Shown: positions 36,463 through 60,966 of the stretch, in pieces
Layout of the letters: each line of letters opens with the position of its first letter
How positions within the stretch are numbered: position 1 is the stretch's first letter
Assembly (NCBI GenBank): GCA_007751255.1
Contig: CP036296.1
Coordinates: forward strand, 5,270,001 to 5,334,000
Origin: Engelhardtia mirabilis
GTDB taxonomy: Bacteria > Planctomycetota > UBA1135 > GCA-002686595
DNA: 64,000 nt
Reading direction: 5' to 3'
Notes under the pieces: generated by a model
The model's input: the letters and a program-made list of their open reading frames with translations, nothing else
What the model was told of the DNA's origin: nothing
Databases searched by the model: none
Position numbers and translations under genes: made by a program

Positions 36463-38028
36463 TCAAGTGTAGAAGTGGCGCTGGCCCTTCATGTGGTGCG
36501 CCGCCTCGATCTCTTCGTCGGACTCGTACTGGAGGTCGTCCGAGTCGTCGTCGGAGAGGTAGGGGAAGAGGGCTTGATCCGCGGCGGGCAGTTGGCCGAA
36601 CTGGAGCCGGCCCTCCCTTACGGCGCGCAGACGCCCCACCTGTTGGCGTCCCTCCTTTGCCGACGAGACGAACTTGAAGTAGGTGGGGATCGCCTCGAGA
36701 TCGATCTTGCCTGCCTCGACCATGCGCAGGTCCGCGCGGAAGATCCAAGGCGCGCCCTTCTTCCGCCACTGCTCGGCCAGGCCCACGATGGCCTCCATCA
36801 TGATCGCCGTACTGCGCTGGTCGAGGGTGGCAAGGCCATGGGCCGTGCCCTCCAGCAGTCGCCTCGCTACGGACCGGTCGTCTTCGGCGCCCTTGACCGC
36901 TTTGAACAGACCGCTGTACGGAGGCGGTTTGCTGCCCAGCCCGTGAACCAGCGGCGCGCCTCGGTTGTGTCGCGCGCGAAGATTGTGAGCGGGATCGCCG
37001 ATCTGCATGTCCGTCCGCTGATCTTCGCTCCAGTTGCGATACTCGTTCCTGACCGAATCGCCGTATTTGTAGGGTCGGTCGTGGCCGTAGAAGTAGTTGG
37101 CGCCGTAGAGCACGGCGCCCAATCCCGCGCCGATTCCCGCGCCGACCGTGGCGCCAACCGCCGTCGCCCCCCCCACGAGCGCGCCCCCCGCTACCAGTCC
37201 AACGAACTTCACGGCCGACCACGGGAAGCGTTGAATGGGAGTTCCCGAGTAGTCGGTAGACGGTCTCTCGCTCGCGGCCCAGTCCGCCGCGATCGCCCTG
37301 CAGTGCGACAGAGCCTCTCGCTTCGACTGGCTCGCGCCGGGACCGGGCACCGAGCACTCGAGCTCGCGCCCGGATGGGAGTGACGAGCTGGGCTGACTCG
37401 CGAGTCGCGCCCCGAGCGCATCGGCTTCCCGCTCGAGGCCCGGGTCGTCGTTGATCGGCACGCCGTTGACCCGGCCGTTCGGGCGGACTCGCCCTCGAGC
37501 CTGCTGGACGAAGTGAGCCGCTTCGTGACCGATGAGCGCCCTGCCCCCCGGTGTGTGCGGGCGGTACATGCCCGGTGCGAAGTGCAGGTTCGCGCCGCGC
37601 GTAAAGGCCAGCGCCCCCATCGCGGGGGCCGCGGGGGAGTTCGGATAGACGCGGATCTGAGACAGGTCGTGCCCCAAGGTCTGCTCCATGCGCTGCAGAA
37701 GCGGGCCCGGCAGACCGGTTCGATTCGCCCGTTGCCGGGGATCGTCCATCCCGCGCAGGCCGCGTCGCACGGCCTCTCCCGCGGCGCCCTCGGACCGGGG
37801 CCCGGCGCCGTCCGGCGCGCTCCCCTGTCGATCCGCCCGCGCGCCATTCGATCGGCGCTGCGCCGGCGCCGCGAGTGGAGTCTCGACCAGGCCCCACCCC
37901 GGACGAGTTGGTGGGGATTCGACGGGCGATCCGATCGTGGACCGCCCCACCCTGGCCGCGGCATGGCGCGGTACGGCGACCACCGCGCGCGTCCTGGCCG
38001 TGTCCTCTCGACGACTCACTCGTTCCAT
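36463..38028 (-). CDS. DUF4157 (eCIS-core) protein, candidate injection-system cargo
   Basis: 521 residues from the ATG at 38028; a TTG at 38049 is an alternative. Residues about 105-210 form the DUF4157/eCIS-core domain, a zincin-like fold often found in proteins linked to contractile injection systems: RVYPNSPAAPAMGALAFTRG, then GHEAAHFVQQ with the HExxH motif (168-172) and a later Glu in LEREADALG (199-201). After a short linker a hydrophobic, Gly-rich segment (about 274-311) looks membrane-active, followed by about 200 hydrophilic residues and a very acidic tail region (SDDDSDDLQYESDEE). The core domain is thought to mark proteins for packaging, so this is the best cargo or toxin candidate. 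It is the last gene of the locus. Confidence 0.82.
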   Translation of the reverse strand: MERVSRREDTARTRAVVAVPRHAAARVGRSTIGSPVESPPTRPGWGLVETPLAAPAQRRSNGARADRQGSAPDGAGPRSEGAAGEAVRRGLRGMDDPRQRANRTGLPGPLLQRMEQTLGHDLSQIRVYPNSPAAPAMGALAFTRGANLHFAPGMYRPHTPGGRALIGHEAAHFVQQARGRVRPNGRVNGVPINDDPGLEREADALGARLASQPSSSLPSGRELECSVPGPGASQSKREALSHCRAIAADWAASERPSTDYSGTPIQRFPWSAVKFVGLVAGGALVGGATAVGATVGAGIGAGLGAVLYGANYFYGHDRPYKYGDSVRNEYRNWSEDQRTDMQIGDPAHNLRARHNRGAPLVHGLGSKPPPYSGLFKAVKGAEDDRSVARRLLEGTAHGLATLDQRSTAIMMEAIVGLAEQWRKKGAPWIFRADLRMVEAGKIDLEAIPTYFKFVSSAKEGRQQVGRLRAVREGRLQFGQLPAADQALFPYLSDDDSDDLQYESDEEIEAAHHMKGQRHFYT

Positions 38029-38136
38029 CGGTGGATTGCGGTTGCTCAAGGATCGCCGTTCAAGTCGTTGATGCGATGGGTGAGAGGAGTCCCCGACCGC
38101 GCCCGGGGGCGCGCTCCTGGTGCACAGTTCGCCGGC

Positions 38137-38868
38137 TCATCGCCGCTCCGGGATCGCCATCTGTTCGCGCACCGCGTCCAGGGAACGTTGGGTCCGCTCC
38201 AGGGCCTCCGACAGCTTGTGGAGCCTCTGCAGCGTCAGCAGCACGCCGAGTAGGGCGAGGACGATCAACGGCAGGACAAGGATGTTGTTCAAGAGCGACT
38301 GGGCCATGGTGTCGTACCAGGCCTCCGTCGTTCCGGTCGTTGACACCCAGCGGCGTTCACTGGTCGCGTCACCCGGGAACCACTGACCGAGGCGGTAGAC
38401 CTCGGCCCACAGGTTCTGCTTCTGGTAGTCGAGGGGCTCCTGGTCCGGGTCGGGCGCCAGTTGCTGCGCGAGCACCGCCAGAGGGTCCCCGGCGAGGTCC
38501 GGCGGCGGGGCGCTGGCGCTGGTAGCACCTCCGCCGGCACCCGCATTGGCGCTCACGGCCGGAGGCGCGCCAGCGGTGCTGGGTTCCGTGCTCCCCTGCG
38601 CCACTGCCGGGGCACCTGCAGGTGCTGGGGCTTTCGCAGCCGCCGGTGCAGACGTCTCCGCGGGAGCACTCGCAGCCGCGGGGGCAGACGTCTCCGCCGG
38701 GGCCGCATCCGCCTTGCCGAGGCCGAGGAGAGAGCATCCCGACAGGACGGTGCCGATCAAGAGCAGAGCGGCCAAGACCCTCCCATACCCTCGCGACCGA
38801 TCCCGTGCGTCCGTCGAAATGGAGTGGGTCGGCATCGTCTCGCTCGGCATCGTCTCGCTCGACATCAT
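38137..38868 (-). CDS. Double-anchored lipoprotein coupled to the PAAR gene
   Basis: 243 residues. A charged N-terminus precedes a lipoprotein signal (VLAALLLIGTVLSGC, lipobox Cys45). An Ala/Pro-rich spacer of about 75 residues (ETSAPAA-type repeats) follows, then a globular part. A transmembrane helix lies near the C-terminus (about 194-213; ILVLPLIVLALLGVLLTL), and a short coiled coil (LSEALERTQRSLDAVREQM) ends the protein. Its ATG shares a base with the PAAR stop (TGATG), so its synthesis should be coupled to the spike tip. A lipoprotein with both a lipid anchor and a C-terminal membrane helix could bridge or anchor structures in the envelope. I know no named family for it. Confidence 0.75.
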   Translation of the reverse strand: MMSSETMPSETMPTHSISTDARDRSRGYGRVLAALLLIGTVLSGCSLLGLGKADAAPAETSAPAAASAPAETSAPAAAKAPAPAGAPAVAQGSTEPSTAGAPPAVSANAGAGGGATSASAPPPDLAGDPLAVLAQQLAPDPDQEPLDYQKQNLWAEVYRLGQWFPGDATSERRWVSTTGTTEAWYDTMAQSLLNNILVLPLIVLALLGVLLTLQRLHKLSEALERTQRSLDAVREQMAIPERR

Positions 38869-39167
38869 CAGCCCCCGATCATCACGGTCGGCAAACCCGC
38901 GACGACGGTTCCGCCGTGGGCGCAGGTATCGCCCATGCGCGCGGCCGGTCGGCCGCTGATCAGGACGCTGGTCGAGCCCATGGCGATCGTGTCCGGCGGA
39001 CCGGTGCACACGAGCAGATCCCCCACGACCGAGGCGGGCATGCCGCCGATCAGGACGGTGGGGACGCCGGGACCCGTGATCGGACCGCCCACATGGGGGA
39101 TCGGGGGCAATCCCGGGGTGACCATCGGGCACACGTGCATGTCTGTCACTCGAGCGGCGGGGGGCAC
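38868..39167 (-). CDS. PAAR-type spike tip protein (Afp10-like)
   Basis: 99 residues. The GTG at 39167 is chosen because PPAARVTDMHVCP, the diagnostic PAAR start, follows directly and a GGAGG lies nine bases upstream. The chain is a series of short Gly/Pro-rich turns (TVLIGGMPASVVGD, STSVLISGRPAARMGD, HGGTVVAGLPTVMIGG) with Cys and His at metal-binding positions, the usual conical beta-helix that sharpens the VgrG-like spike. In eCIS particles this protein caps the tip and may carry an effector. It sits between the tape-measure-type gene and the lipoprotein gene, away from the VgrG-like gene. Confidence 0.9.
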   Translation of the reverse strand: MPPAARVTDMHVCPMVTPGLPPIPHVGGPITGPGVPTVLIGGMPASVVGDLLVCTGPPDTIAMGSTSVLISGRPAARMGDTCAHGGTVVAGLPTVMIGG

Positions 39168-39282: not shown

Positions 39283-42200
39283 TCACGGGTGGCGACCCCC
39301 GACAATCGAGACGTCGAGCAGCCCGACCCACGACAAGCTCACGAGACCGAGGGGGAGCGAACTGCGCTCCAGCAGTTGGTCCAATTCGCGGCGTCCGAGC
39401 TGCGTCCGCCGCGCGGAGCCACTCCGCGGTCCGATGCGCCCACTGCGCAGGATGAAGTACTGCTCGATCGCCCCCGGCCCGTGGCTCGCCATGCCCGGGA
39501 TGACGTTGGCCAGACTCGCCAGGAGCGCGCGCGCCACCCGCTCGACGGCCAACGCCTGGGCCGGTAGCGGCGCCTCGATCGTTCTGGCAAGGGGCCGGCC
39601 AGCCTCGGCTTCCAACGGGATCCCGGCCAGGAGCAGGGTCATCGGATCGGCATGCCAACCCTCGGGCCGCTCCAGGTTGCAGACCGAAGCGAGCAGCCAC
39701 TGGCGATGCAGTTGCCGCAGGGATTCCCGATCGGGCGTCTCCAACTGTTCGAAGAGGTCCGCGCAGGCCCCGGGCAGGAAAGCGACCAACAACGCCAGTC
39801 CCGCCGCGCGGCTCGGAGTCCAACCGTCCGGATCAGCCATCGACCCTGGCTCCGCGGACCAACGCTCGACCGTCAGCGCTCGAGACCCGCTGCCATCGAG
39901 TTCGCGATCGCTCACGCGCGCGGCACCCGACCACAGGGGCTCGAGCACCGTCACCTGGTCGTGCTCCGCGGTGCCGCTGGGCGCCGGCGCGGTCGAGATC
40001 GCCGTCCGCAGTCGACCCAGCTCGGCGGGGGTCGGCGGACGCCCCTCGCCGATCCAGGAGGCCTGGTCCCGATCGAACCAGTCGGGCAGGCTCGCGCCCG
40101 ATTCGATTCGCTGGCGCAGTGCCTGGGCCAATCGCGCCGCCGCGCGCGCGCGCTGGGCCGGGTCGCCGAGCGCACCGGGAGCGGGAAGGGCCAACTCGAA
40201 CAGCAGCGCCAGTTCGAGGTCGTTCGATCGCGCGCTCGAGCCACCACCGACCCGCGCTGCGGGCAGGTGTCGAGTCCCACGGATCGCCCGCTCGAGCTCA
40301 TCGCCGGTTCGAGCTCCGCCCGGCGGGAACGGCAGCCGCAGGGTCGCCCACAACTCGGTGGGCTCCGGCGCACGCCGCTCTCGAACCCAAGCTGTCTCGG
40401 CGGCGCCGCGATCGATCCACTCGGGCCACGGTGCGCCGAGTTGATCGAGGCGGGCGATAGCGGCGGCGACCCTGCGACCCAGGCTCGCGCGCGTCTGCGC
40501 CGCCGTCACCGACTCAGGGCGGGGCGCGAGTTCCTCCCGCACCAGCGGCGGGCACGCCCCGCTCGCTCCGTCGCTCGATCCCTCGATCCGCCAGACGATT
40601 GCCCCGCCGCCCGAGCTCCCGTTGGTCAAAGCCCCATCGACGAAGGCCACCAGAGCGTCGATCAGGCCTTCGACGGTGTTGGATTCGACCTCCTCGGACT
40701 CCGCTCGGCTCTCGAACGTGGTCGCGGCCCAGTCGCCGGATCCGACGCGGATCAAGCCAGCGAGGTCCGCCGCACTCGGCGCGCGGCCGGCTCGGATCCA
40801 GCCTGCGCGCTCGGCGTCGGGGCTGAGCCAATGCGGCCGAGCTCGACTCCCGGTGCGGATGGTCGAGAGCGCTTGCGCGACGTGGGGACCGCTCACCTTC
40901 GCGAGCGGGGCCGAGCCGGCTTCGGCGTTCGCACATGCCTCGACGAGTGCAGCGGCCAGGGCTGCGATCAGAGTGCGGTCGGGACTCGGATCGGCCGGGC
41001 CCCCTGCAACCGTTGCGCCGTCGTCGACCGTCCCCGCGCCGGCGGCGGTCGCGGGCGCGGCTCCATCCGATTCGCGGCTCGCGGCCAGTCGCTGCGACGG
41101 CACCTTCGCCCCGCCAAGATGGGGTTGCGTCCCACGTGCGATTGGAGCCGCAGCCGCTCCCATGACCGCGGCTCCCGACAACCCGCCCCCCCCGCCGCCC
41201 GGCAAGCGCAGGACGGCGAGGATTTCCGCGAGCTGCGGCGCGGTCCTGCCTCGCACCCACGTCGCTCGGGCCGCGGCGGGATCCAGGATCGGCGGCCAGG
41301 GTGTGTTCGATGAAGCTAGCTCGGCAATCCAACCCGCCAAGCGCCGCCCGATGGCCTGCGTGGCGCGATCGACGCCGTGCGCCAGCGGCGACGAGCACCC
41401 GTCGAGGTAGGCCGCGATCAACAGCACGATCGCTCCGGCCCGACCACTGCGTGTCTCGATCAGCGCGGAGATGTTCGTGCGGACAGCGCCGGGTTCTCTT
41501 CCCGGCCAGCGCTGCATGAGAGCCTCGGTCAGCACGCTCGTTCCATGGCGCCGCGGGGCTCCCGTCGGCTCGTGGACGGCATCCGATTCCCTCAGGGCCT
41601 CGAGTTCCCCCAGGGCTGCGCCAACCGACGGCTCGCTCAGTCCGGCAGGGACCGCCGCCAGCAGTTCGAGCAGGGCCGTGACTCGCGCCGCACCGCGCCG
41701 ATCGCTCCCAGGTCGCTGCTCGGAGGCGCGCCGCTCGCCGAGGAACCAGGGAGGACCGGCGAACGCCCCGAGCACGCCGCGGATCCAAGTCGGCGCCGCC
41801 TCACCCGCGGCCCGCTGCTCGCCCGTGACGACGATTCGCGAGCACGTGGCGCGCAGCCAGTCCTCGAGCGGATCCTCGGCGAGCCTCTTCGGAGCGGCTG
41901 CCGCCCGCGTCGGCCGTGGCCGCTGGCCGGCCGCGAACCAGGGCTCGGCGCCGAGGGCCGCCCAGAGTGCTCGGTTCCAGGAGGCTCGCGAATCGGCTCC
42001 CAGCGGGGCTCGCTCGAATCGCGCATCGGCATCGTTCGATTCCGACTTCGCCACCAATGCGGTTGCCACCCGCGCAACGGCCGCCGCATCGGATCGACGG
42101 ACCTCGCCCGCGACGATCCTTGCCTCGGCCGGATGGGCCGTCGACGAGGGCTCCGCCGGCAGCGGAATCGCCGACGAGTGGAACGTCGGCCCCTGCGGCG

Positions 42201-42642
42201 CCGGCGTGAGGTCAGCCGGCGTCCCACCCGGCGCTGGGACGGCCGTCGGCGATGAAGCTGCGTGCGGGACATCCGTCGGCCTTGCGACCGCCGGCGAGGG
42301 CCCAGTCGCCGGCGGGGCCGCTTCGAACTCCAGCTCGCTCATGGCTCGCTCACCGTCGCGCTCGAGCGAGGCCTGGGCCGCGATCAAGATCTTCTGGGCC
42401 CACAGCCACCCCGCGGCCTCGTCGTCGAGTCCGGCCAGGTCGAAGTCCAGCTCGACCCGCAGGCGACCGATCACCGCCCCTCGCAGCTGCGACGCCTGCC
42501 CGGCGAGCAGGGAATCGAGTTTCGCGCCCAATCCGCTGCGCGCGATGCGCTCCAGTCGGGTTCGCAGCTCGAAGGCCTCGGGCCCCGCGCCCTCGACCTT
42601 CAAGTGCAGCCGCTCGACCCGGCCCTTGGCGCCCGTCGGCAT
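39283..42642 (-). CDS. Contractile injection system tape-measure-type protein (CIS_TMP, Afp14-like)
   Basis: 1119 residues. The N-terminal 100 residues (HLKVEGAGPEAFELRTRLERIARSG, GRLRVELDFDLAGLDDEAAG) and the C-terminal 160 (LALLVAFLPGACADLFEQL, MTLLLAGIPLEAEA) match the ends typical of CIS_TMP proteins; the middle is a long Ala/Pro/Arg-rich, repeat-like section containing many short AELA/ATWVRxGRxP modules (for example RATWVRGRTAPQLAEIL, RAGWIRAGRAPSAADLAGLI, AAWVRERRAPEPTELWATL). Such proteins set or guide tube length in Afp-type particles. The unit-like middle modules would allow length variation. The gene lies nine bases downstream of the 555-residue protein gene. Confidence 0.8.
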   Translation of the reverse strand: MPTGAKGRVERLHLKVEGAGPEAFELRTRLERIARSGLGAKLDSLLAGQASQLRGAVIGRLRVELDFDLAGLDDEAAGWLWAQKILIAAQASLERDGERAMSELEFEAAPPATGPSPAVARPTDVPHAASSPTAVPAPGGTPADLTPAPQGPTFHSSAIPLPAEPSSTAHPAEARIVAGEVRRSDAAAVARVATALVAKSESNDADARFERAPLGADSRASWNRALWAALGAEPWFAAGQRPRPTRAAAAPKRLAEDPLEDWLRATCSRIVVTGEQRAAGEAAPTWIRGVLGAFAGPPWFLGERRASEQRPGSDRRGAARVTALLELLAAVPAGLSEPSVGAALGELEALRESDAVHEPTGAPRRHGTSVLTEALMQRWPGREPGAVRTNISALIETRSGRAGAIVLLIAAYLDGCSSPLAHGVDRATQAIGRRLAGWIAELASSNTPWPPILDPAAARATWVRGRTAPQLAEILAVLRLPGGGGGGLSGAAVMGAAAAPIARGTQPHLGGAKVPSQRLAASRESDGAAPATAAGAGTVDDGATVAGGPADPSPDRTLIAALAAALVEACANAEAGSAPLAKVSGPHVAQALSTIRTGSRARPHWLSPDAERAGWIRAGRAPSAADLAGLIRVGSGDWAATTFESRAESEEVESNTVEGLIDALVAFVDGALTNGSSGGGAIVWRIEGSSDGASGACPPLVREELAPRPESVTAAQTRASLGRRVAAAIARLDQLGAPWPEWIDRGAAETAWVRERRAPEPTELWATLRLPFPPGGARTGDELERAIRGTRHLPAARVGGGSSARSNDLELALLFELALPAPGALGDPAQRARAAARLAQALRQRIESGASLPDWFDRDQASWIGEGRPPTPAELGRLRTAISTAPAPSGTAEHDQVTVLEPLWSGAARVSDRELDGSGSRALTVERWSAEPGSMADPDGWTPSRAAGLALLVAFLPGACADLFEQLETPDRESLRQLHRQWLLASVCNLERPEGWHADPMTLLLAGIPLEAEAGRPLARTIEAPLPAQALAVERVARALLASLANVIPGMASHGPGAIEQYFILRSGRIGPRSGSARRTQLGRRELDQLLERSSLPLGLVSLSWVGLLDVSIVGGRHP

Positions 42643-42651: not shown

Positions 42652-44319
42652 TCAGCCTTGGAAGAGCCAACGCAGGAAGGGCACGTGCTGCGGCTCGGGT
42701 TGCAGGCCGGATGCCCGCGACCGCGCTCGCGCTGTCACCGCGCGTGCGAACCCCAGGACCACGGTCGAGTCGTGCTCCGTGACGATGGTCAGCGGTTCGT
42801 CGAAGGAGGCCAGCAGGATGAACTCCAGACCCTCGCAGGCCTCGTCGTCGGCGATCGACACGGGCCGACTGGCGACCTTGACGCGCGCACCGCCGGGGCC
42901 CACTTGCTTGGCGAGAGCACCGAAGACCTGGGCCACCGTGAAGCCGACCAACTCGCACAGGGCCACGAGCCCTTGGCGCTTGGGGTCTACCCGTTCGACC
43001 TCGCTGCAGTCGCAGAAGGTGAACGGATCGTTGAGCGGCTCGATCAGGCTCGGGGCCGGCCGCGCCGCGTCCAGCCCACTGCCCGGCATCGGCGCGGTCG
43101 AGTCGGCGCCCCGCGGCCCCGGCTCGGCGGCTCGGGGCGCCTCGCGCGAGCAGCGCAGCGGATCCAGGGGCCACAGGGACGCGATGCGCTGGGGCCGGTC
43201 CAGACGCAGCTCGCGCATCCACGCCCGCGTGCCGGCGTCGCACTGCAGCGGCGACAGGGTCCAGGCCATCGGCCGCTCCCGCTCGCTCTGCGCCGGATCG
43301 CGATCGCGGGGCAGGAAGGGTCGCAGCCGCTGTAGCCCGCGCAGGAGCGCATGTACGCGGTCTGCGGCGACTTCGCGCACGAAGCGCGGTGAGTAGCCCA
43401 GGAGTTCCAGACGCGACAGACCGAGCGCGAAGCCGGCGCGCCAGCGCCCGTCCCAGCGCCACGCCCGCAGCTCGTCGCGGTACAGCCACCCCAGGGGCAC
43501 CCCGACCTCGACCGACTCGCAGTTGCTTGCGTTCCTCGGCCATTGAAAATCCGAATCGAAGCCGCGCAGCTCGATGTACTGCTGGGCCCGCGCCCGCTGC
43601 CAGAGGCTGTAGACGATGTCGTTGAGGGCGGCCATGGTCAGCACGTCTCGGGCGGAGGGTCGCCCGTAGCTCAGCTCGTCGGACAGGTCCAGGGCGCTCA
43701 AACGCCTGCGGGTGTCGTTGCGGAAGGGCTCCGACTGCTCGCGACTCATCTCCGCGTGGATCCGGGCCTTGAGCTCGTCGAATTGCTTGCGGAGGCGGCT
43801 CCCGTCACCGGCGCGCAGGTCCGCGAGGGATTCCAGCGGCAGGCAGCGGCTGGCGTCCGGCGTTCGGCTGACCACGCGACCGCGCACCATCTGGACCTCG
43901 AACGAGTCCTCCCGCCGCGTCGCTCCGCTGATCGGGTCCGTGACGTCGTAGGAGCGGTAGAACAAGACAGGGGTCAGGTTCTCGGTCGGCGAGCCGGGGT
44001 CGGCGACGTGCGGGTGCTTCGCGTCCGCCTCGCGCGGATCGAGCAGTCCGGAACAGACCGGCACTCGCTGGGGCTTGTCGACTCGAATCAGACGTCCCAG
44101 GGGATCGATGGCAGCCCCCGCTCCCAGCTCCCACTCGCGTGTCTGGGGGATCAGTCGGCCGGTGAGGCCGAAGAGGATGCCCTGCCCGTGGAACTGGCGC
44201 GCCTGGAAGCGGGCCAGGTCCTGGCTCGCATCGGCCATCTGATTCAGCGCGGCCGCTGTGACGACCTGCCCCGGTTCGAAACGCGGAAGCCAGGGCCGCT
44301 GTTCCCTTGTCGTGCTCAT
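42652..44319 (-). CDS. Conserved-position eCIS protein of unknown role (555 residues)
   Basis: No domain recognised. The N-terminus (RFEPGQVVTAAALNQM, LGAGAAIDPLGRLIRV) has short motifs like those in eCIS and phage baseplate or fibre-associated proteins that start with a 'location/placement' segment. The C-terminal 120 residues are more compact and contain three Cys near CDCSEVERVDPKRQGLVALCE. It overlaps the upstream tail-protein gene (ATGA), so it is produced with the baseplate. Since no tail-fibre gene is recognisable in the locus, this protein and its position make it one of two candidates for the receptor-binding or peripheral baseplate element. That role is a guess. Confidence 0.6.
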   Translation of the reverse strand: MSTTREQRPWLPRFEPGQVVTAAALNQMADASQDLARFQARQFHGQGILFGLTGRLIPQTREWELGAGAAIDPLGRLIRVDKPQRVPVCSGLLDPREADAKHPHVADPGSPTENLTPVLFYRSYDVTDPISGATRREDSFEVQMVRGRVVSRTPDASRCLPLESLADLRAGDGSRLRKQFDELKARIHAEMSREQSEPFRNDTRRRLSALDLSDELSYGRPSARDVLTMAALNDIVYSLWQRARAQQYIELRGFDSDFQWPRNASNCESVEVGVPLGWLYRDELRAWRWDGRWRAGFALGLSRLELLGYSPRFVREVAADRVHALLRGLQRLRPFLPRDRDPAQSERERPMAWTLSPLQCDAGTRAWMRELRLDRPQRIASLWPLDPLRCSREAPRAAEPGPRGADSTAPMPGSGLDAARPAPSLIEPLNDPFTFCDCSEVERVDPKRQGLVALCELVGFTVAQVFGALAKQVGPGGARVKVASRPVSIADDEACEGLEFILLASFDEPLTIVTEHDSTVVLGFARAVTARARSRASGLQPEPQHVPFLRWLFQG

Positions 44320-52755: not shown

Positions 52756-52758
52756 GGC

Positions 52759-52932
52759 TTACTCGCGCCAGTGCTGCGCCAGCCGCTCCAGGACCGCCTC
52801 GGCGACCCGCTCCACGAGTTCTTCGAGTTCCTCCGGCCGCAGGGAGCCCAGCCCTGACGGAACGGGCCCCTGAGCCTGGTGCTCCGGGTGCTGCGAAAGT
52901 GCGACTTCACTGACGATCTCGTTGATGAACAT
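52759..52932 (-). CDS. Small eCIS protein (Afp6-position, DUF5908-like)
   Basis: 57 residues. An ATG with a GGGAG ribosome site 8-9 bases upstream. MFINEIVSEVALSQ at the N-terminus, followed by a Gly/Pro linker and the amphipathic C-terminal helix EELEELVERVAEAVLERLAQ, fits the short DUF5908-type protein always found between tube and LysM genes in Afp/PVC loci. The helix should pack in the tube/hub interface. It is easily missed because of its size; the call rests on position, pattern and coupling with its neighbours. Confidence 0.75.
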   Translation of the reverse strand: MFINEIVSEVALSQHPEHQAQGPVPSGLGSLRPEELEELVERVAEAVLERLAQHWRE

Positions 52933-52961: not shown

Positions 52962-53435
52962 TCAACCCCGGCCGCTCGCGCCGCCACCCACCACGATGCC
53001 CCGGTGGGCGAACTCGACCGTCTCGAAGGCCACCTGGCCGCGGGCCGCGTCGAGCTTGGGCCCCTCCCACTTGAGCGGGTAGGCCCTGCTGGCCGTCCAG
53101 GACCGCAGCACGTCGGGCCGAGCACCGCGGCTCTTCAACTGCACGATGATGTCCGCCGGCTTCACCGTGGACGTCTCGACGAACTCCCGAATCCAGTCCC
53201 ACAGGGCGGAGGCATCGTCCAACCCACGCTTGAGGATCAACGGCGCGGAGGTCGCGTGGGTCGGGAGCTTGTGCACGAAGTGGTTGCTGCCGCCCTCCTT
53301 GTACTCCTCGCTTCCGATCTCCACGTTCAGTCCACTGCACTCGCTGAAGGACCCGAGTTCGTGCCCCTTGGCGCTGACTTCAAAGCACATCCCCAAGAAG
53401 GGGAAGTCCTTGCCTTCACCATCGGCTCTGGTCAT
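52962..53435 (-). CDS. Inner tube protein 2 (gp19-like, Afp5-like)
   Basis: 157 residues from the ATG at 53435; the open frame continues upstream but lacks tube features. Sequence pattern of gp19-type tail-tube proteins: FLGMCFEVSAKGHELGSFSECSGLNVE, then LILKRGLDDASALWDWIREF and the closing YPLKWEGPKLDAARGQVAFETVEFAH. In eCIS this second tube protein forms the first ring on the hub and so differs from the main tube protein. It is shorter at the C-terminus than phage tube proteins. Confidence 0.9.
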   Translation of the reverse strand: MTRADGEGKDFPFLGMCFEVSAKGHELGSFSECSGLNVEIGSEEYKEGGSNHFVHKLPTHATSAPLILKRGLDDASALWDWIREFVETSTVKPADIIVQLKSRGARPDVLRSWTASRAYPLKWEGPKLDAARGQVAFETVEFAHRGIVVGGGASGRG

Positions 53436-53490: not shown

Positions 53491-53934
53491 CTAGCCGTTC
53501 TTGATCGTGACGCCCTCGTGGCACAGCTCGATCGACTCGATCGCGATCTCGTTGCCCTTGCCATTCAAGCTGGGCCCTTCGACCTTGACCGGCCAGGCGC
53601 GCAGCAGCGCCCAGGAGACCGTCTCGTCGCCGCTCTCATTGAGCAACGTGATCGTGACCGCACGCTGTTCGTGGGTGCCGAGCTGGTTCTTCTCCCACCA
53701 ACTGAAGAAGTCGTTGTCCTTGGCCAGGATCCCGCGCTTGAGCGTGACGTTGCTGTACTTCATCAGCCCGGGGATCTTGCGGGTGGTGAGGGAGCCGTCC
53801 GCCCCACCTCGGTACTCGATCATGTCCGTCTCGACGTTGAGGCCCGCGACCTCCGAGAAGTTGGCGATCGACCCTCCCCAGTCCACGGAGAAGCGGATGC
53901 TGGCGAGGGGGTAGGCGAGTGTTGCGTCTGCCAT
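53491..53934 (-). CDS. Main inner tube protein (gp19-like, Afp1-like)
   Basis: 147 residues. MADATLAYPLASIRFSVDWGGSIANFSEVAGLNVETDMIEY-type start (the classic tube signature, given here in outline), followed by NVTLKRGILAKDNDFFSWWEK and WPVKVEGPSLNGKGNEIAIESIELCHEG. It should polymerise as hexameric rings inside the sheath and form the hollow tube that carries cargo. Residue spacing equals that of the neighbour at 52962-53435, so the two arose by duplication. Confidence 0.93.
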   Translation of the reverse strand: MADATLAYPLASIRFSVDWGGSIANFSEVAGLNVETDMIEYRGGADGSLTTRKIPGLMKYSNVTLKRGILAKDNDFFSWWEKNQLGTHEQRAVTITLLNESGDETVSWALLRAWPVKVEGPSLNGKGNEIAIESIELCHEGVTIKNG

Positions 53935-53973
53935 TTGGTTCGGGCTCCTTGCCGCCAGGGGCGGCTAGCGGTC

Positions 53974-56226
53974 TCAGGTGGACTGGGTCTGGACGAGTTG
54001 GCTGACGGTGAACACGACGAACTCGGCCGGGCGCACGGGGGCGATGGCGATTTCAACTTTGAGCAGCCCGTTGTAGACGTCGGTCATCGTCATCGTCTGC
54101 GGCACGCCGCACTGCACGCGGAAGGCCTCGTCGGGCGTCGAGCCCATCAGGCCGCCGTCGCGCCAGAGCTGGCGCAGGAAGCCCTCGGCCGCGTTCACGA
54201 GCTTGTTCCAGGTCGCCTGGTCGTTCGACTCGAACACGGCCCACATGGTCTGCTGCTTGAGGGTGCGCTCGACGTACAGGAACAGCCGGCGCACGTTGAC
54301 GTAGCGCCACATCACGTTCTTCGTTGACGTGCGCGCGCCCCAGATCAGCATGCCCTGCCCCGGGAAGCTGCGGATCAGGTTGACCCCCGCCGGATTCAGG
54401 CTCTCGCTCTCGTCCTCGGTGAAGTCGAGCTGCATGCCCACCGGCCCGAGCACGGGGATGTTCGCCGGCGACTTCCACACGCCGACCATGTTGTCCGAGC
54501 GGTTGTAGGCACCCAGGATGTGGCCCGACGGCGGCACGTACACGGTCTTCTCGTCCGAGCTCGCGTCCAGGTTGGGCGAGCGGAACCAGGGCGCATAGAT
54601 CGCGGCGTGGGTGCTGCGGAAGCGATCGGCGAAGGTCGCCAGGGCGGTGGCGCGCTTGTTCAGGTCGCCCAGCTCCTTGGCCTCGGCCATGGGCGGCGGG
54701 TCGATCACGGCCATGCAACGGTTGTTGAAGGCGTAGTCGATAGCGGCCTGGTAGATCGGCTGGTAGGTCGAGGCCGGGGTGCTGTTGCCGTCCAGGTAGG
54801 CATCCGGGCAGGCGATCAGCGAGACATCCGGCACGCCCTTGAGCAGCGGGAAGTACTTGGTGTACTCGGTCGAAGCCGGGACTTGGTCGCTGCCAGCGTT
54901 GAGCACCGTCGCTCCCCCGGGCGCCTTGGGCGAGACCGGCTCCGCGCCCTCTACCGGCGTGTCACTGAAGGCCACGGCCTTGCCCTGGTCGACGAATTTG
55001 GACAGCCGCACCCGGTTCGAGATGCCGTTGACGACGTCTTCCTTGAGGAAGTAGCTCGGATCGCCGGGGTCGGTGCTGAGCCCCTGGTAGGCCTCGAGGA
55101 CCTTGAACGACGTGGCATCCCCCGGGTTGCGCGGGGGCACCGGCTCGACGATCTCGAGATCGAAGGTCAGCCGGAAGGCGTCACTCTGCAAGTGCAAGGG
55201 GGCTTGCAGCTCGCCGGCGGGCATCGATCCGAGCACCGTCCCATCGGTGACCACGAAGCCCACACCGTCGGGATCCGAGAAGAAGAAGGCCTGCACCTCC
55301 GGATCCGGGTCCCAGGCGCCGCTCAGGGTCTTCTTGCCAGCGGGCGTGTCGACGTTCTCGAACTGGACCCGCGTCTTGGAGTTCCAGCCGGCGATCTCCT
55401 CCGCACCGAAGGGCTTGCCAGTGTCCGTGTTGGTCAGCACCGACGCCTTGACGCTGGTGTCCGGCAGGTAGCTCACGGGAATCAGGACCGTATCGCCCTT
55501 CGCGTTCTGGGCCTCGATCGTGCCACTGCCGGCCTTGGTCTGACCATCCTTGAAGACGAATGCCCCTTCACCGTCGACGCCGCTGGTCCACTCGCCCACC
55601 TCTTCCCCCAGGGTCAACTTGGCGCCCTTGGAGAGGCCCGTGGCCGAGGGGATCGGCGCCTGCGAGATCGGCTTGAGGCGACCCCGTCCGACGTTGACGA
55701 AGTCGGCAGCGCTAGGCAGCGCGAGGGTCACGGGCACCGGAGTCAGGGGGAAGGCGGACCGAGCGGCCGTCTTCGAGGCCCGCAGGCGCAGCTTGTTGGC
55801 CCAGGTGCCACCCGAAATTGCATCCACGCGCAGGGCGATCGTGGCCGGCTTCAGATCGTCCGGCGAAGACTCGTCGAACGGATCGAGCAGGCGCTCGTAG
55901 TCCACGACGTTCTCGATCGAGGCGATCGACCAGAAAGCCGCGTCTCCGCTGTTGACCCGGCATACGTAGCACTCGCTCCCGCCGTTGAGGAAGAACGCGT
56001 AGACGCTGTCGGTGATGTAGGCGTGGGGGAACACGGCCTTGTTCTTGGGCCGCCCGCCGAAGACGGCGTAGAACTCGTTGAGGCTCTTGATCCGCCGCGG
56101 CTTGAGGGACTCACCCTGGTGAGTGAATCCGAAGAAGCAGGGCACGCCAGTCGGCACACCGCTGAGCGGCATCGGGGTCGACTGGTCCTCGAAGACGTAG
56201 ACGCCGGGAGCTGAGAGGGTCTGCAT
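53974..56226 (-). CDS. Contractile sheath protein (Afp2-4-like)
   Basis: 750 residues, longer than most eCIS sheaths. The N-terminal handshake strand and domain start are plain (LSAPGVYVFEDQSTPMPLSGVPT and VPCFFGFT, then SLNEFYAVFGG), and the conserved C-terminal domain is intact (VMWRYVNVRRLFLYVERTLKQ, WAVFESNDQATWNKL, VQCGVPQTMTMTDVYNGLLKVEIAIAPVRPAEFV). A large insertion (about 130-440), beta-rich and variable, lies between the two conserved parts and should face the particle surface. Only one sheath gene is present, whereas Afp has three. The ATG lies three bases after the stop of the upstream gene. Confidence 0.95.
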   Translation of the reverse strand: MQTLSAPGVYVFEDQSTPMPLSGVPTGVPCFFGFTHQGESLKPRRIKSLNEFYAVFGGRPKNKAVFPHAYITDSVYAFFLNGGSECYVCRVNSGDAAFWSIASIENVVDYERLLDPFDESSPDDLKPATIALRVDAISGGTWANKLRLRASKTAARSAFPLTPVPVTLALPSAADFVNVGRGRLKPISQAPIPSATGLSKGAKLTLGEEVGEWTSGVDGEGAFVFKDGQTKAGSGTIEAQNAKGDTVLIPVSYLPDTSVKASVLTNTDTGKPFGAEEIAGWNSKTRVQFENVDTPAGKKTLSGAWDPDPEVQAFFFSDPDGVGFVVTDGTVLGSMPAGELQAPLHLQSDAFRLTFDLEIVEPVPPRNPGDATSFKVLEAYQGLSTDPGDPSYFLKEDVVNGISNRVRLSKFVDQGKAVAFSDTPVEGAEPVSPKAPGGATVLNAGSDQVPASTEYTKYFPLLKGVPDVSLIACPDAYLDGNSTPASTYQPIYQAAIDYAFNNRCMAVIDPPPMAEAKELGDLNKRATALATFADRFRSTHAAIYAPWFRSPNLDASSDEKTVYVPPSGHILGAYNRSDNMVGVWKSPANIPVLGPVGMQLDFTEDESESLNPAGVNLIRSFPGQGMLIWGARTSTKNVMWRYVNVRRLFLYVERTLKQQTMWAVFESNDQATWNKLVNAAEGFLRQLWRDGGLMGSTPDEAFRVQCGVPQTMTMTDVYNGLLKVEIAIAPVRPAEFVVFTVSQLVQTQST

Positions 56227-56229: not shown

Positions 56230-57024
56230 TCACTCGGAAGCGCGGAGGTTGCGTGGGGTCACGAGCCGGTGGCGCGTGACCGGCGTCGAGTAGCTCATCA
56301 TTCGGTCGACGACGCGCATCCCGTCGACAACCACCTGAAACGGGTAGTAGCGCGCATCCCAGACGCGCGCTGGACAGGAGCGGTAGATGGCGGCCTGCGC
56401 GAGGTCGGAGTCGACACAGGGCCAATCGGCCTCGATCAACTCGACCGCCGGCGCCCCCTCCTTGCCGCGCACCTCGACCACCGCGCCGCGCAGGGGGCGA
56501 CCCTGCTCGTCGGCCAGGACGATCTCGAGGGTGCTCGCGACCGGCTCGAGACGCACGACGTGCTCGGCCTTGCCGCCGGATCCGAGCTTCGCAACGGTGA
56601 GTCGCGCGACGAGGGGGCTCGCGCCTGCGCGCTCGGGTGTCGATGTCGCTCGCTCGCAGCGGTGCAGCTCACCGCAGCTCGCTGCACGAAGCGCTCGTGG
56701 ATCGATCTCGGTCGGCGCGACCGGCGCTGGCACCGCCGTCGGCGCTTCGGCGCCGGACTGCGCGCCACCGACGAGGAACGAGGACGAGACTCGGGCACGG
56801 ACCCGGGCGTCGACCAGACGGACGTCCACGCTGGTCTCCTCCGGTTGGTCACCGAGCAGCCCCTCCGCGGCCATCAGCAGGGCGTGCCCGCGCCGATAGG
56901 CGATGGTCCAACCGCTCCAGGTGGGCTCGACGACGTCGATCTCGATCGGTCCCAAGAGCTCGCCGGTGACCGCGTGCTCGACCCGCACCGCCGCCACCAG
57001 GGTGGTACCGATCACACCGGTCAT
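56230..57024 (-). CDS. eCIS-associated protein with carboxypeptidase-regulatory-like domain
   Basis: 264 residues from the ATG at 57024, chosen because it overlaps the upstream stop (ATGA). The first ~90 residues contain VEHAVTGELLGPIEIDVVEPTW and resemble Ig-fold, carboxypeptidase-regulatory-like domains; after an Ala/Pro-rich linker a second such strand pattern appears (VVRLEPVASTLEIVLADEQGRPLRGAVVEVRG). The C-terminus (RVVDRMMSYSTPVTRHRLVTP) is unrelated to anything I know. Proteins of this kind in eCIS clusters are placed beside the sheath and may be surface or cap-associated. Its exact role is unknown. Confidence 0.65.
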   Translation of the reverse strand: MTGVIGTTLVAAVRVEHAVTGELLGPIEIDVVEPTWSGWTIAYRRGHALLMAAEGLLGDQPEETSVDVRLVDARVRARVSSSFLVGGAQSGAEAPTAVPAPVAPTEIDPRALRAASCGELHRCERATSTPERAGASPLVARLTVAKLGSGGKAEHVVRLEPVASTLEIVLADEQGRPLRGAVVEVRGKEGAPAVELIEADWPCVDSDLAQAAIYRSCPARVWDARYYPFQVVVDGMRVVDRMMSYSTPVTRHRLVTPRNLRASE

Positions 57025-57626
57025 GACCCCGCTCCGGCCGCTGCAGGCCCCATCTGTGCGGGCGCGCTCGCACGCGCCGTTCGCACGCCCGGTGCCTCGC
57101 CGTCGAGGTATCCGGGCACCTGGACCGACCGGACCTGATAGTAGAGGCACAGTCGTGCTCCGCCCTGGCGTCCCCGCCACAGGGGCTCGGTCCGCTCGGG
57201 GTCGGGGGTCTCGAGACTGACGTCAAGACCTCCCAACTGCAGTCCACTGGCGCCGGCGGCCCGCTGATCGACGGCGGTCAGGTAGTCGCGGGGCTCGATC
57301 ACCGGCACGGTGTGAAAGGCTCGCAGAACGCCACCCAGAGCCGACTCCAGGCTCTCCTGGGACTTCGACTGATAGGACACCGCGTAGTGCAGGTGCAGCA
57401 GGAGCTGCGTCGGTGAACCCTTGGCGCCCGGGTTACGGCGGTAGGGTCCCTGCGGATCGGGTTCGACCCGATAGAGCTGCAGGACCAAGGTCTCGGCGTT
57501 CGCCTCCGAATCCGCTTCGGAGAACTCGCCCAGGCGCACCCAATCCTCGGGCCGCACGTCCGGCTGGGGTGGCGGAACGTGCGCACTGATGAAGCGCTGG
57601 AGCGTGCGGGAGGCGAGCAGGAGCAT
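57021..57626 (-). CDS. DUF4255/Pvc16-type tube-sheath terminator (Afp16-like)
   Basis: 201 residues from the ATG at 57626. The DUF4255 pattern is clear: LVLQLYRVEPDPQGPYRRNPGA followed by TQLLLHLHYAVSYQSKSQESLESALGGVLRAFHTVPVI, with the conserved DLxY-like block. In Afp/PVC this protein caps the distal end of tube and sheath. The last 30 residues (Ala/Pro-rich) are poorly conserved. As the first gene of the minus-strand operon it lies at the divergent control region. Confidence 0.88.
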   Translation of the reverse strand: MLLLASRTLQRFISAHVPPPQPDVRPEDWVRLGEFSEADSEANAETLVLQLYRVEPDPQGPYRRNPGAKGSPTQLLLHLHYAVSYQSKSQESLESALGGVLRAFHTVPVIEPRDYLTAVDQRAAGASGLQLGGLDVSLETPDPERTEPLWRGRQGGARLCLYYQVRSVQVPGYLDGEAPGVRTARASAPAQMGPAAAGAGS

Positions 57627-58860: not shown

Positions 58861-58905
58861 ACTCGGAAGACCTCTGAGTTCGGCACAGCGGCATTCGGAG
58901 CACGG

Positions 58906-60966
58906 ATGCCTGCGAGGCGGCGGATTCTGGCACTCGGTCGCGATCTGCTCGGGGCTGACAGCGAAGAACACTGGCAAGTAAGAACGACCTCCGTGGATTC
59001 CACCGGTAGCCCGAACGACAGCTGGCAGGACGCCAACCGGCGCCACCTGGGGCAACTGCTCAGCGCCACCTTCCTGGCGGTGGAGTCGGCCAGCCAGGGG
59101 GGTGCTGCCACCGAGGCCAGCCGGGAGCGGCACGAGCAGGCCCTCGCCGCCGCCGAGGACACCGCCGCCAGCATGGCCTCGCCGCCCCATGCGGACGTGC
59201 TCGGCGAGGTCTTCGACCTCTCCCCGTTCGAATTGTCGGTGGTCCTCCTGTGCGCCGGCTGGGAGCTCGATCGCGGCAAGCTGAGCCCTTGGCTGGGGAC
59301 CGGTGTCGGGCCGACCCTGGGCAACGCGATGGCGCTGTTGCCCGACGCCCATTGGTCGGCCAGCACCCCTGCGTCTCCGCTGCGAGCCTTTCGGCTGATC
59401 GATGTCGACGCCTCCGGTTCCCTGATCAACTCGGCGATCCGCATCGCCGAGCCTGTGCTGCACTTTCTCAAGGGCGCACCCTCGGCGTCGATCGAGATCA
59501 CGCGCCTGTCGACCCCGGCCCCGACCCCGGCCCCGACCCCGACCCCGACCCCGCTCCCGATTCCCGACCATGCCGGCGAGGTCGTCGCCCGCCTGCTCCG
59601 GCGCCCGTCCGGACCGGGTCCCGTGCAGCTGGTGGGCGACAACTGGCTGACCCTCGCGGCCGGATCGACCATCGGTCAGGCGATGGGCATCCCCGTGCGG
59701 CTGTTCCGTGCCGCCGACCTGCCCACGCGACGCGAGGAACTCGACGAGCTGCGCGTGTTGCTCGCGCGCGACGTGAGCCTGGGAGCGCTCGTGCCTCTGT
59801 TCCTCGTGGATCGGGCGGCGGGCCGCGGAGGTCTGGACGCCGTGGCCCACTGCATCGATCCTCGCCTGCCGATCGCCCTGATCGCCTCACCCGAGCCGAT
59901 CCGAATCGACCTCCCCGGCCTGCGCGCCGTGAGCCTGCCCCCGCGCAGCCATCAAGACCGGTTGGAGCACTGGCGCCAGTGCCTAGGAGCCAGGGCCGAC
60001 GACCTGGAGCCGCTGCTCGACCGATTGGTGGTCCAGTTCCGGCTCGACCCCCAACAGGTCGAGACGGCCTGTGACGCCTGGTTCGACGCCAGCGACGAAG
60101 AGCTACCGCCTGAGCCCGCCGAGCTCTGGCAGGCCTGTATCGAGGTCGCCACGCCCCAACTCGACGGCCTGGCGGAGCGCGTCCCGGCCCGCGACGGGTT
60201 CCGCGATCTCGTCCTGCCGCCCGCCCAGCGCGAGGTGCTCGACTCGATCGTCGCTCAGTCGCGACAGCGCGCGGTGGTGGACGTCCGCTGGGGCATGCAG
60301 CCGCCGGACAGCCGCGGCGGCGGCATCGCGGTGCTGTTCTCGGGCCCGAGCGGCACGGGCAAGACCCTGGCCGCCGAGGGCCTGGCCTGGGAGCTCCGAC
60401 TGCCGCTCTTCCGGGTCGATCTCTCGAGCGTCGTGAGCAAGTACATCGGCGAGACGGAGAAGCACCTCTCCAAGCTCTTCGACGCGGCCGAGGCGGGCGG
60501 CTCGGTGCTGCTCTTCGACGAGGCCGACGCCCTGTTCGGCAAGCGCAGCGAGGTCTCCTCGGCCCACGACCGCTACGCGAACATCGAGGTCAGCTACCTG
60601 CTGCAACGGCTCGAGTCCTACTCCGGCCTCGCGATCCTGACCACGAACCACCGCAGCAACATCGACGAGGCCTTCCTGCGACGGGTGCGCTTCGTGGTCG
60701 CCTTCCCGACCCCCGGTGTGCGCCAGCGACTCGCCCTCTGGCAGCGAGTCTTCCCCGACCGCGTTCCGATCGCCGACCTCGACCACGACCGCCTGGCGGA
60801 GATCGAATTGACGGGCGGATCGATCCGCAACGCCGCCCTTGTCGCGGCGAGCCTGGCTGCGGAAGCTCAGTGCGCGGTGGGCATGCCCCAGGTGTTGCGA
60901 GCCGTCCGACTCGAGCTGGCCAAGCAGGGCAAGCACCTCGCCATCCACAGCGACGAAGCGCGTTGA
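58906..60966 (+). CDS. AAA+ ATPase (Afp15-like) of the injection system
   Basis: 686 residues. The C-terminal ATPase shows Walker A GPSGTGKT (about 480-487), Walker B LLFDEAD (about 535-541), a sensor in LAILTTNHRSNIDEAF and an arginine finger in LRRVRF. The N-terminal 440 residues, with a helical bundle and a Pro/Thr-rich hinge (TPAPTP-type, about 203-218), match the non-conserved front of Afp15. The enzyme is needed to assemble or load Afp particles. The ATG at 58906, with GGAG upstream, is used; a GTG at 58993 would also fit. The gene follows the putative regulator by about 45 bp. Confidence 0.92.
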   Translation: MPARRRILALGRDLLGADSEEHWQVRTTSVDSTGSPNDSWQDANRRHLGQLLSATFLAVESASQGGAATEASRERHEQALAAAEDTAASMASPPHADVLGEVFDLSPFELSVVLLCAGWELDRGKLSPWLGTGVGPTLGNAMALLPDAHWSASTPASPLRAFRLIDVDASGSLINSAIRIAEPVLHFLKGAPSASIEITRLSTPAPTPAPTPTPTPLPIPDHAGEVVARLLRRPSGPGPVQLVGDNWLTLAAGSTIGQAMGIPVRLFRAADLPTRREELDELRVLLARDVSLGALVPLFLVDRAAGRGGLDAVAHCIDPRLPIALIASPEPIRIDLPGLRAVSLPPRSHQDRLEHWRQCLGARADDLEPLLDRLVVQFRLDPQQVETACDAWFDASDEELPPEPAELWQACIEVATPQLDGLAERVPARDGFRDLVLPPAQREVLDSIVAQSRQRAVVDVRWGMQPPDSRGGGIAVLFSGPSGTGKTLAAEGLAWELRLPLFRVDLSSVVSKYIGETEKHLSKLFDAAEAGGSVLLFDEADALFGKRSEVSSAHDRYANIEVSYLLQRLESYSGLAILTTNHRSNIDEAFLRRVRFVVAFPTPGVRQRLALWQRVFPDRVPIADLDHDRLAEIELTGGSIRNAALVAASLAAEAQCAVGMPQVLRAVRLELAKQGKHLAIHSDEAR
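59511..59553 (+). repeat. Pro/Thr codon microsatellite inside the ATPase gene
   Basis: A tandem array of CCCCGA/CCCCGG-type hexamers encodes alternating Thr-Pro/Ala-Pro. It forms the flexible hinge before the AAA+ part and is a likely site of slippage. Confidence 0.7.

What the first reader, a model, noticed from the sequence alone, without database searches (positions are those of the whole stretch)
36463..60966. A near-complete extracellular contractile injection system (eCIS) locus
A single locus encodes sheath, two tubes, LysM adaptor, VgrG-like spike, gp25, PAAR tip, baseplate wedges, a tape-measure-type protein, a DUF4255 terminator and an AAA+ ATPase, with overlapping start/stop codons along most of the minus-strand operon. 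These are the Afp/PVC core set. Compared with Afp it has only one sheath gene, the sheath is unusually long, the ATPase is divergent, and extra genes of unknown role are embedded. Its presence in an apparent Planctomycetes-type genome is of interest.
Basis: partly seen in the sequence, partly recalled or inferred. Interest (0 to 1): 0.85.

Follow-up and report, generated by a model that had tools for sequence, protein, structure and literature searches.

The report
Complete, divergent planctomycete contractile injection system
This planctomycete chromosome carries what looks like a complete gene set for a syringe-like protein-injection particle related to phage tails; the machine type is known, but this version belongs to a seemingly rare, deeply branching lineage and has a candidate cap-connector gene and a membrane-protein gene of unknown role.

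Summary
The finding is real. Seventeen minus-strand genes (36463-57626) and a divergent AAA+ gene (58906-60966) encode the eCIS (Afp/PVC-like) core: DUF4255 cap, one sheath, two tubes, DUF5908, LysM/CIS_tube, VgrG, gp25, two J-like wedges, a Tail_P2_I-type adaptor, a fibre-anchor protein, tape measure, PAAR and a DUF4157 cargo candidate. No head gene was seen among the ORFs scanned.

It is not Afp itself. In a five-protein tree its nearest kin are loci of Terracoccus (Actinobacteria) and one metagenomic contig, a deep trio apart from Streptomyces-type systems. The sheath alone does not recover this.

The 555-aa protein carries the Alg19/Cis19 fibre 'shoulder' domain. An operon-encoded membrane protein has no credible homologue here.

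The long single sheath and the ATPase are not unusual. CIS genes are not rare in this phylum: 36 of 392 genomes match. Verdict: new member of a known kind.

The parts
57021..57626 (-). DUF4255/Pvc16_N cap (tail terminator), 201 aa
   Evidence: Pfam Pvc16_N 2.2e-16 on the frame 57021-57683; start and same-position homologues in L111 and L164
56230..57024 (-). X264: conserved gene between cap and sheath, proposed cap adaptor (Alg16B-like by size and place)
   Evidence: Top hits among 22,288 ORFs are the syntenic genes of the two sister loci (E 0.0013-0.0016); profile 26.6 bits against 12.9 best of 1000 shuffles; not found at 1e-3; no PDB match
53974..56226 (-). Contractile sheath, single copy, 750 aa
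   Evidence: Phage_sheath_1C 6.1e-13, phrog_23 6.1e-58, PDB sheaths to 5.5e-73
53491..53934 (-). Inner tube protein 1
   Evidence: Phage_T4_gp19 1.2e-41
52962..53435 (-). Inner tube protein 2 (tube or tube initiator)
   Evidence: Phage_T4_gp19 2.1e-32 on the enclosing frame; start
52759..52932 (-). DUF5908 small protein (Afp6-like), 57 aa
   Evidence: Weak Pfam 0.0069, under cut-off; the gene at the same place in L111 is DUF5908 at 1.1e-7
52087..52755 (-). Afp7-like CIS_tube plus LysM tube/spike adaptor
   Evidence: CIS_tube 5.3e-38, LysM 7.6e-4
50288..52090 (-). VgrG-like spike
   Evidence: Phage_base_V 1.8e-22, NF033848 VgrG_rel 3.3e-47, under its cut-off
49814..50275 (-). gp25 sheath initiator/wedge
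   Evidence: GPW_gp25 5.1e-20
46932..49817 (-). wA: Afp11/Alg11-like baseplate wedge, 961 aa
   Evidence: TIGR02243 4.8e-15; PDB 7aeb baseplate J protein of AlgoCIS 2.2e-14, Afp11 3.5e-11
45226..46935 (-). wB: second J-like wedge with Afp12/Pvc12-type N-terminus, 569 aa
   Evidence: TIGR02243 N-term 6.5e-8; profile to Pvc12 1.3e-9, Alg12 8.9e-9, also an S. coelicolor wedge 8.2e-7
44316..45233 (-). gpI: Tail_P2_I/TIGR02242-type adaptor, 305 aa
   Evidence: TIGR02242 weak 0.0045; after the trio, the next profile hits include Tail_P2_I genes next to shoulder-domain genes
42652..44319 (-). P4: fibre-position protein with Alg19/Cis19-type shoulder (anchor) domain at about residues 14-81
   Evidence: Profile of relatives without the trio matches residues 15-81 at 5.1e-7; profile to tCIS crown 7b5h 2.4e-13 and Alg19 9wt0 3.3e-11
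39283..42642 (-). Tape-measure protein (CIS_TMP by transitivity), 1119 aa
   Evidence: blastp to the Terracoccus CIS_TMP; CIS_TMP 3.5e-15 there; profile 0.0011; against: nothing
38868..39167 (-). PAAR tip (GTG start after GGAGGAG)
   Evidence: PAAR_motif 2e-23 on frame 38868-39305; start choice
38137..38868 (-). Membrane protein, 243 aa: hydrophobic stretches at 31 and 196, Ala/Pro-rich between; unknown role
   Evidence: Hydropathy 2.22 and 2.71; no homologue in fetched loci; its last 120 aa gave one weak hit outside its own genome in a search of 249 genomes
36463..38049 (-). Cargo/effector candidate with eCIS_core (DUF4157), HExxH and a glycine-rich hydrophobic stretch
   Evidence: eCIS_core 8.4e-20; the only one in the genome; sequence
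58906..60966 (+). AAA+ ATPase with winged-helix domain, divergently transcribed
   Evidence: AAA 4.3e-26, WHD 7.5e-7; near the other CIS genes in several loci

Best explanation
A complete chromosomal contractile injection system of the eCIS superfamily, in a deep lineage shared with Terracoccus and one metagenomic contig. Shown: gene content, gene order, domain families, no phage head gene among the ORFs scanned, and tree placement. Inferred: particles assemble in the cytoplasm on a VgrG/PAAR spike with wedges of gp25, wA, wB and gpI. Tube and sheath grow to a length set by the tape-measure protein and are closed by the 201-aa cap plus X264, acting as a ring that ties the cap to the last sheath layer. 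P4 attaches through its shoulder domain to the baseplate rim as a short fibre that senses or binds a surface. The AAA+ ATPase loads the DUF4157 protein, which is injected when the sheath contracts. Most likely the particle acts on other cells after release. The operon's membrane protein is unexplained.
For: Domain matches. PDB relatives of sheath, wedges and shoulder domain. Tape measure by transitivity. Trio supported in the five-protein IQ-TREE run (42 hand-picked rows; SH-aLRT 98.4, UFBoot 100) and FastTree (111 rows; 0.994); VgrG alone 0.91, gp25 alone 0.94, four proteins without sheath 0.997. Shared order cap-X264-sheath-tube-tube-DUF5908-Afp7-VgrG-gp25-wA-wB-gpI-P4, with PAAR placed before gp25 in the two relatives. 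X264 control: 26.6 bits against at most 12.9 in 1000 shuffles. Sampled flank genes chromosomal. Cap-adaptor precedent: Alg16A 197 aa plus Alg16B 284 aa in AlgoCIS (PMC8894135 passages). Shoulder-domain precedent: Alg19 (PMC13314943 section 7).
Against: Sheath alone does not recover the trio and leaves the window on a long unresolved branch; tube and Afp7 trees put the two relatives nearest but lack the exact split. X264 matches no solved cap adaptor. The tape-measure link is weak in sequence and failed in a whole-genome search. As a single sequence P4 found only 4 of 38 CIS-bearing genomes at E 0.1, best 3.6e-4, and has no recognised receptor-binding domain after residue 81. No lysis gene was identified among the ORFs scanned. 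Structure prediction could not be run. Expression and particles are untested.
Confidence: 0.8

Rival explanations
1. The particle is not released but works inside or at the membrane of its own cell, as in Streptomyces (cytoplasmic, CisA-dependent) or Anabaena (thylakoid-anchored) systems; the operon's membrane protein is the docking partner.
For: A protein with two hydrophobic stretches is encoded in the operon. P4's shoulder domain matches the tCIS crown protein best (2.4e-13). CisA is a membrane protein needed for firing (PMC12237407, passages and section 6). PMC12998442 (passages) warns that mode of action cannot be predicted reliably from sequence alone.
Against: In the concatenated tree the window is apart from the Streptomyces/Chloroflexota clade. 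It has a tape-measure candidate and a fibre-anchor protein, while the S. coelicolor cluster is said to lack both kinds. The same shoulder domain is in the extracellular AlgoCIS fibre. The membrane protein was not compared with CisA, and any likeness in layout is loose.
Confidence: 0.22
2. Remnant of a myophage, or an R-type tailocin, rather than an injection system.
For: The parts are phage-tail homologues, and 924 phage records have a sheath match.
Against: AAA+, DUF4157, DUF4255, CIS_tube and CIS_TMP-type genes are eCIS markers. No capsid, portal, terminase or integrase in 29 protein queries across 29053-63573 or in 10 flank ORFs. No phage record covers 80% of the sheath; the 15 rows shown cover at most 49%.
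Confidence: 0.02
3. A horizontally acquired locus that is decaying or silent.
For: Patchy in its family: none of the 20 other same-family genomes listed has a CIS_tube match, although three same-family genomes (G406, G411, G416) have divergent sheath matches. A promoter scan of the divergent gap found nothing, though it assumes sigma-70 sites.
Against: All 18 genes are open with no internal stop, and junctions are tightly packed.
Confidence: 0.05

Closest known systems
Terracoccus sp. 273MFTsu3.1 CIS locus (NZ_KB911822.1; L111, L251, L252) and IMG/VR UViG 3300047160_032453 (L164)
   Same: Same order from cap to P4 (in Terracoccus on to the tape measure; L164 ends within P4), apart from PAAR; of the loci fetched, the only ones with a clear homologue of the gpI protein (33% identity) and of X264.
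   Different: There PAAR lies before gp25; in Terracoccus the AAA+ is inside the operon, the tape measure is 402 aa, the P4 counterpart is about 740 aa from its likely start with a long C-terminal half, and the DUF4157 protein 1719 aa; no homologue of the membrane protein 38137-38868 was detected.
AlgoCIS (Algoriphagus machipongonensis)
   Same: Single long sheath (692 aa), short cap (197 aa) beside an adaptor, Alg11/Alg12 wedges, Alg19 shoulder domain.
   Different: X264 has no sequence match to Alg16B; P4 is 555 aa against 1443 for Alg19; a separate Tail_P2_I-type protein is present.
Afp (Serratia entomophila) / PVC (Photorhabdus)
   Same: Core gene set; Afp11/Pvc12-type wedges.
   Different: One sheath gene instead of three (Afp2-4); no Afp13/Pvc13-type fibre recognised; cap 201 aa against 293-295 for Pvc16/Afp16 (PMC8894135); separate lineage.
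Streptomyces coelicolor cytoplasmic CIS (subtype IId)
   Same: Second-best PDB sheath match 8bky/9gtp (3.1e-66; the best, 9ezm, was not identified); gpI profile touches chain 9gtp_E weakly (0.018); a membrane protein is encoded in the cluster.
   Different: Different clade; window has a tape-measure candidate and a fibre anchor.

Membership tests
eCIS (Afp/PVC-like superfamily) | At least ten core genes clustered, with an eCIS-specific one (AFP12, 13, 14 or 16), as in PMC8213781 (passages) | tested here: met
   DUF4255, sheath, two tubes, CIS_tube, VgrG, gp25, two J-like wedges, PAAR, AAA+, tape-measure candidate in one locus. Scored with Pfam and NCBIfam, not with the published eCIS HMMs.
eCIS (Afp/PVC-like superfamily) | DUF4157 (eCIS_core) associated gene | tested here: met
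   8.4e-20; the only copy in the genome
eCIS (Afp/PVC-like superfamily) | No phage head genes within 10 kb | tested here: met
   29 queries inside and 10 flank ORFs; a selection of the larger ORFs, not every ORF
eCIS (Afp/PVC-like superfamily) | No T6SS membrane-complex genes nearby | tested here: inconclusive
   None among the scanned ORFs; no genome-wide TssJ/L/M search was run
eCIS (Afp/PVC-like superfamily) | Released, extracellular particle | not testable with these tools
   Needs microscopy
Subtype IId cytoplasmic CIS | Falls in the Streptomyces/Chloroflexota clade | tested here: not met
   Separated in the five-protein tree and in the sheath tree by a starred branch
Subtype IId cytoplasmic CIS | No tape measure, no fibre gene (as stated for S. 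coelicolor, PMC12237407 section 6) | tested here: not met
   A tape-measure candidate and a fibre-anchor protein are present
Subtype IId cytoplasmic CIS | CisA-type membrane adaptor | tested here: inconclusive
   A protein with two hydrophobic stretches is present, but no CisA sequence was compared
AlgoCIS/tCIS type (Ib) | Alg19/Cis19 shoulder-domain fibre | tested here: met
   the domain also occurs in many other loci, so it is not exclusive
AlgoCIS/tCIS type (Ib) | Cap adaptor Alg16B | tested here: inconclusive
   X264 has the size and place; no sequence match; structure not predicted
AlgoCIS/tCIS type (Ib) | Groups with AlgoCIS/tCIS in a tree | not tested
   Their sequences were not in the trees; G070, which I took as a stand-in, is outside the trio
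Prophage or R-tailocin | Head or lysis genes, no AAA+/DUF4157 | tested here: not met
   (ORFs scanned)

The most novel reading that the evidence does not exclude
A third structural lineage of eCIS, outside Afp/PVC, AlgoCIS/tCIS and the Streptomyces type, with its own cap-adaptor protein (X264). In the planctomycete it gained an operon-encoded membrane protein and a shortened fibre that together dock the particle on a membrane, so the machine may fire from inside the producer rather than after release.
Probability: 0.15. Interest if true: 0.6.

Novelty: new member of a known kind. Interest (0 to 1): 0.38.

Why it matters
The locus is complete on a genome of 2 contigs and represents a lineage with only three loci found here. 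It gives testable roles to two unknown gene types, X264 as cap adaptor and P4 as a short shoulder-domain fibre. It also adds a well-assembled planctomycete case to a field whose studied systems, as far as I read, come mostly from Gammaproteobacteria, Bacteroidetes, Streptomyces, cyanobacteria and Chloroflexota/Deinococcota. If the membrane protein proves to be a docking factor, it would show that the released and the self-directed modes can arise from the same toolkit.

Tried and rejected
Considered and dropped. (1) That this is a Streptomyces-type cytoplasmic CIS: suggested by the PDB ranking and the membrane protein, but contradicted by the concatenated tree. (2) That X228 (58174-58860) belongs to the system: its family is in 8 of 392 genomes of the phylum, four of them without a CIS_tube match (G069, G266, G357, G369), with more than one copy in some. 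It does lie near the eCIS AAA+ in G389 and G048, so a link is not excluded. (3) That two J-like wedges plus Tail_P2_I is a unique hybrid baseplate: the locus G153 shows the same three. (4) That the membrane protein has a relative in G392 (2.2e-4): a hit inside an 1130-aa frame in a genome not matched by the sheath, judged low-complexity. (5) Internal repeats of the tape measure: a short W-[IV]-type motif recurs about four times by eye, but BLAST of the protein against itself found no repeat at 0.01.

Rows dropped: the concatenation kept only loci with all five proteins (110 loci plus window); the sheath tree took hits covering 150 or more model positions and dropped the duplicate Terracoccus row (its length filter removed none).
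Full report
What is there. The window is G000:C1:5270001-5334000 of a 6.95-Mb genome in two contigs. On the minus strand from 57626 to 36463 lie 17 tightly packed genes; an AAA+ gene is divergent at 58906-60966. Starts, stops and gaps are: 7 of 16 junctions overlap and 4 more are 12 nt or less. The order is cap (DUF4255), X264, sheath, tube, tube, DUF5908, CIS_tube/LysM, VgrG, gp25, wA, wB, gpI, P4, tape measure, PAAR, membrane protein, DUF4157 protein.

Not phage. None of 29 protein queries in 29053-63573 (some are overlapping alternative frames) and none of 10 flank ORFs (three in 24392-29012, seven in the 12 kb beyond the window's right end) is a head, terminase or integrase gene. Flank genes include glutamate dehydrogenase and a hydrolase, LpxK, a sulfatase and a PPIase, radical SAM and PfkB. 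A PHROGs scan of nine flank ORFs and X228 gave matches for three, an esterase/lipase and two families of unknown function. This is a selection of larger ORFs, not all of them. The genome has one CIS_tube and one eCIS_core match, both in this locus.

Organism. One 16S gene carries the PLA46 planctomycete probe target exactly (probe recalled); the EUB338-II site matched with 2 mismatches. In the phylum, 36 of 392 genomes match CIS_tube, this one included. Of 101 near relatives 7 match the sheath, this one included; the other copies are divergent (34-47% identity in their best pieces). So the system is patchy, as expected for horizontal transfer.

Which lineage. The sheath domain alone puts the window on a long unresolved branch (1.09) with no well-supported set around it. 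By summed tblastn scores Terracoccus (L111) is the closest of the 80 named loci; L164, from IMG/VR, is similarly close. In a tree of sheath, tube, Afp7, VgrG and gp25 (998 columns) the window groups with these two: FastTree 0.994 on 111 rows; IQ-TREE SH-aLRT 98.4, UFBoot 100 on 42 rows that I picked. Per protein, VgrG (0.91) and gp25 (0.94) show the split, tube and Afp7 have the two as nearest neighbours without the exact split, sheath does not; without sheath support is 0.997. A 100/100 branch separates the trio, the Afp/PVC-like loci (L222, L231, L204) and G070 from all other rows, the Streptomyces and Chloroflexota loci among them. The Afp/PVC label of those loci rests on the sheath tree with PDB fragments. 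The tree is unrooted. The gpI family of the trio was found in 2 of 392 genomes of the window's phylum (this one, and one weakly), in 1 of 396 genomes of the Terracoccus phylum, Terracoccus itself, and in 1 viral contig, the one that holds L164. The lineage therefore looks rare, although one search kept only 80 of 588 confirmed loci.

X264. Pfam and the PDB have nothing for it, and a first search at 1e-3 found nothing. Among 22,288 ORFs of the fetched loci its best matches (E 0.0013-0.0016) are the genes lying between cap and sheath in the two sister loci; a profile of those two gives X264 26.6 bits against 12.9 for the best of 1000 shuffles. In AlgoCIS a short cap protein (197 aa) is joined by a 284-aa cap adaptor that links cap and last sheath layer (PMC8894135, passages). 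The window has a 201-aa cap followed by a 264-aa protein overlapping it by 4 nt. The cap-adaptor role is an inference from size, place and co-conservation.

P4. As a single sequence it finds little: 4 of 38 CIS-bearing genomes at E 0.1, best 3.6e-4. Iterated search found a 68-residue domain, residues 14-81 of P4, in 22 ORFs of the fetched loci. A profile built without the trio still matches P4 at 5.1e-7, Z set to 22,288, though its members had been found starting from P4. The profile of 14 such domains finds the tCIS crown protein (2.4e-13) and the AlgoCIS fibre (3.3e-11) in the PDB. In AlgoCIS this shoulder domain holds the fibre on the baseplate (PMC13314943 section 7). A 2026 catalogue calls the crown-type N-terminus eBAP4 and says fibres follow Tail_P2_I and Afp11/12 genes in about 90% of cases (PMC12923769 sections 6 and 8). 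P4 fits that place. Nothing recognisable follows residue 81, so its target cannot be named.

Baseplate and tape measure. wA matches the AlgoCIS J protein and Afp11; the N-terminus of wB matches Pvc12, Alg12 and Afp12 and also a Streptomyces wedge protein. gpI belongs to the Tail_P2_I/TIGR02242 group: after the trio, the next hits of its profile are weak (E 3e-4 to 0.1), but those in G153, G011, L218, G107, L220 and G084 lie just before a shoulder-domain gene, and 6 of 6 such hits scanned are Tail_P2_I in Pfam (L138, G011, G107, G153, L157, L218). The tape-measure call rests on the Terracoccus counterpart, CIS_TMP at 3.5e-15, with window similarity of blastp 8.5e-6 at the C-terminal part and 0.02 at the N-terminus in a small search and 0.0011 by profile; a whole-genome search found nothing.

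Membrane protein and cargo. 38137-38868 has two hydrophobic stretches and no homologue among the fetched loci; its last 120 aa gave one weak, probably spurious hit outside its own genome in a search of 249 genomes. It may dock particles, protect the producer or be unrelated. The DUF4157 protein holds HExxH within LIGHEAAH and a glycine-rich hydrophobic stretch near residue 282. DUF4157 is associated with many putative eCIS toxins (PMC8213781, passages), so it is the cargo candidate; its activity is unknown.

Literature. Searches for planctomycetes with eCIS or Afp terms (one search showed 10 of 58 papers) listed no planctomycete-focused eCIS study in the held library. A 2014 table lists one planctomycete (PMC4122934, passage). 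Chen et al. 2019 is not held. That the Pvc15 ATPase associates effectors with particles is taken from the beginning of an abstract in a search listing (PMC11495950).

Verdict. An ordinary kind of machine in an uncommon lineage. The identity is secure; the lineage and the two new gene roles are moderately supported; the mode of action is open.

Noticed in passing
window 58174-58860 (+): X228, 228 aa, no Pfam match; its family is in 8 of 392 genomes of the phylum, with more than one copy in some, near the eCIS AAA+ gene in G389 and G048 but also in genomes without a CIS_tube match.
   Followed up: partly
L164 and L187 (IMG/VR UViG 3300047160_032453): One 34.6-kb metagenomic contig filed as viral seems to carry two contractile injection loci on opposite strands, one of the window's lineage and one of another.
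   Followed up: partly
L066, L070, L073, L218 (G153, G011, G107 loci and a viral contig): Tail_P2_I genes lie just before shoulder-domain genes; in G153 they occur together with both J-like wedges, which fits poorly with a strict split into Tail_P2_I and Afp12 baseplate types.
   Followed up: partly
window 52087-56226: Sheath, tube and Afp7 genes have lower G+C (0.63-0.66) than the flanks (0.71-0.73), possibly amino-acid constraint or transfer.
   Followed up: no
window 29053-31953 (-): 966-aa FG-GAP repeat protein left of the locus, perhaps a surface or secreted protein.
   Followed up: no
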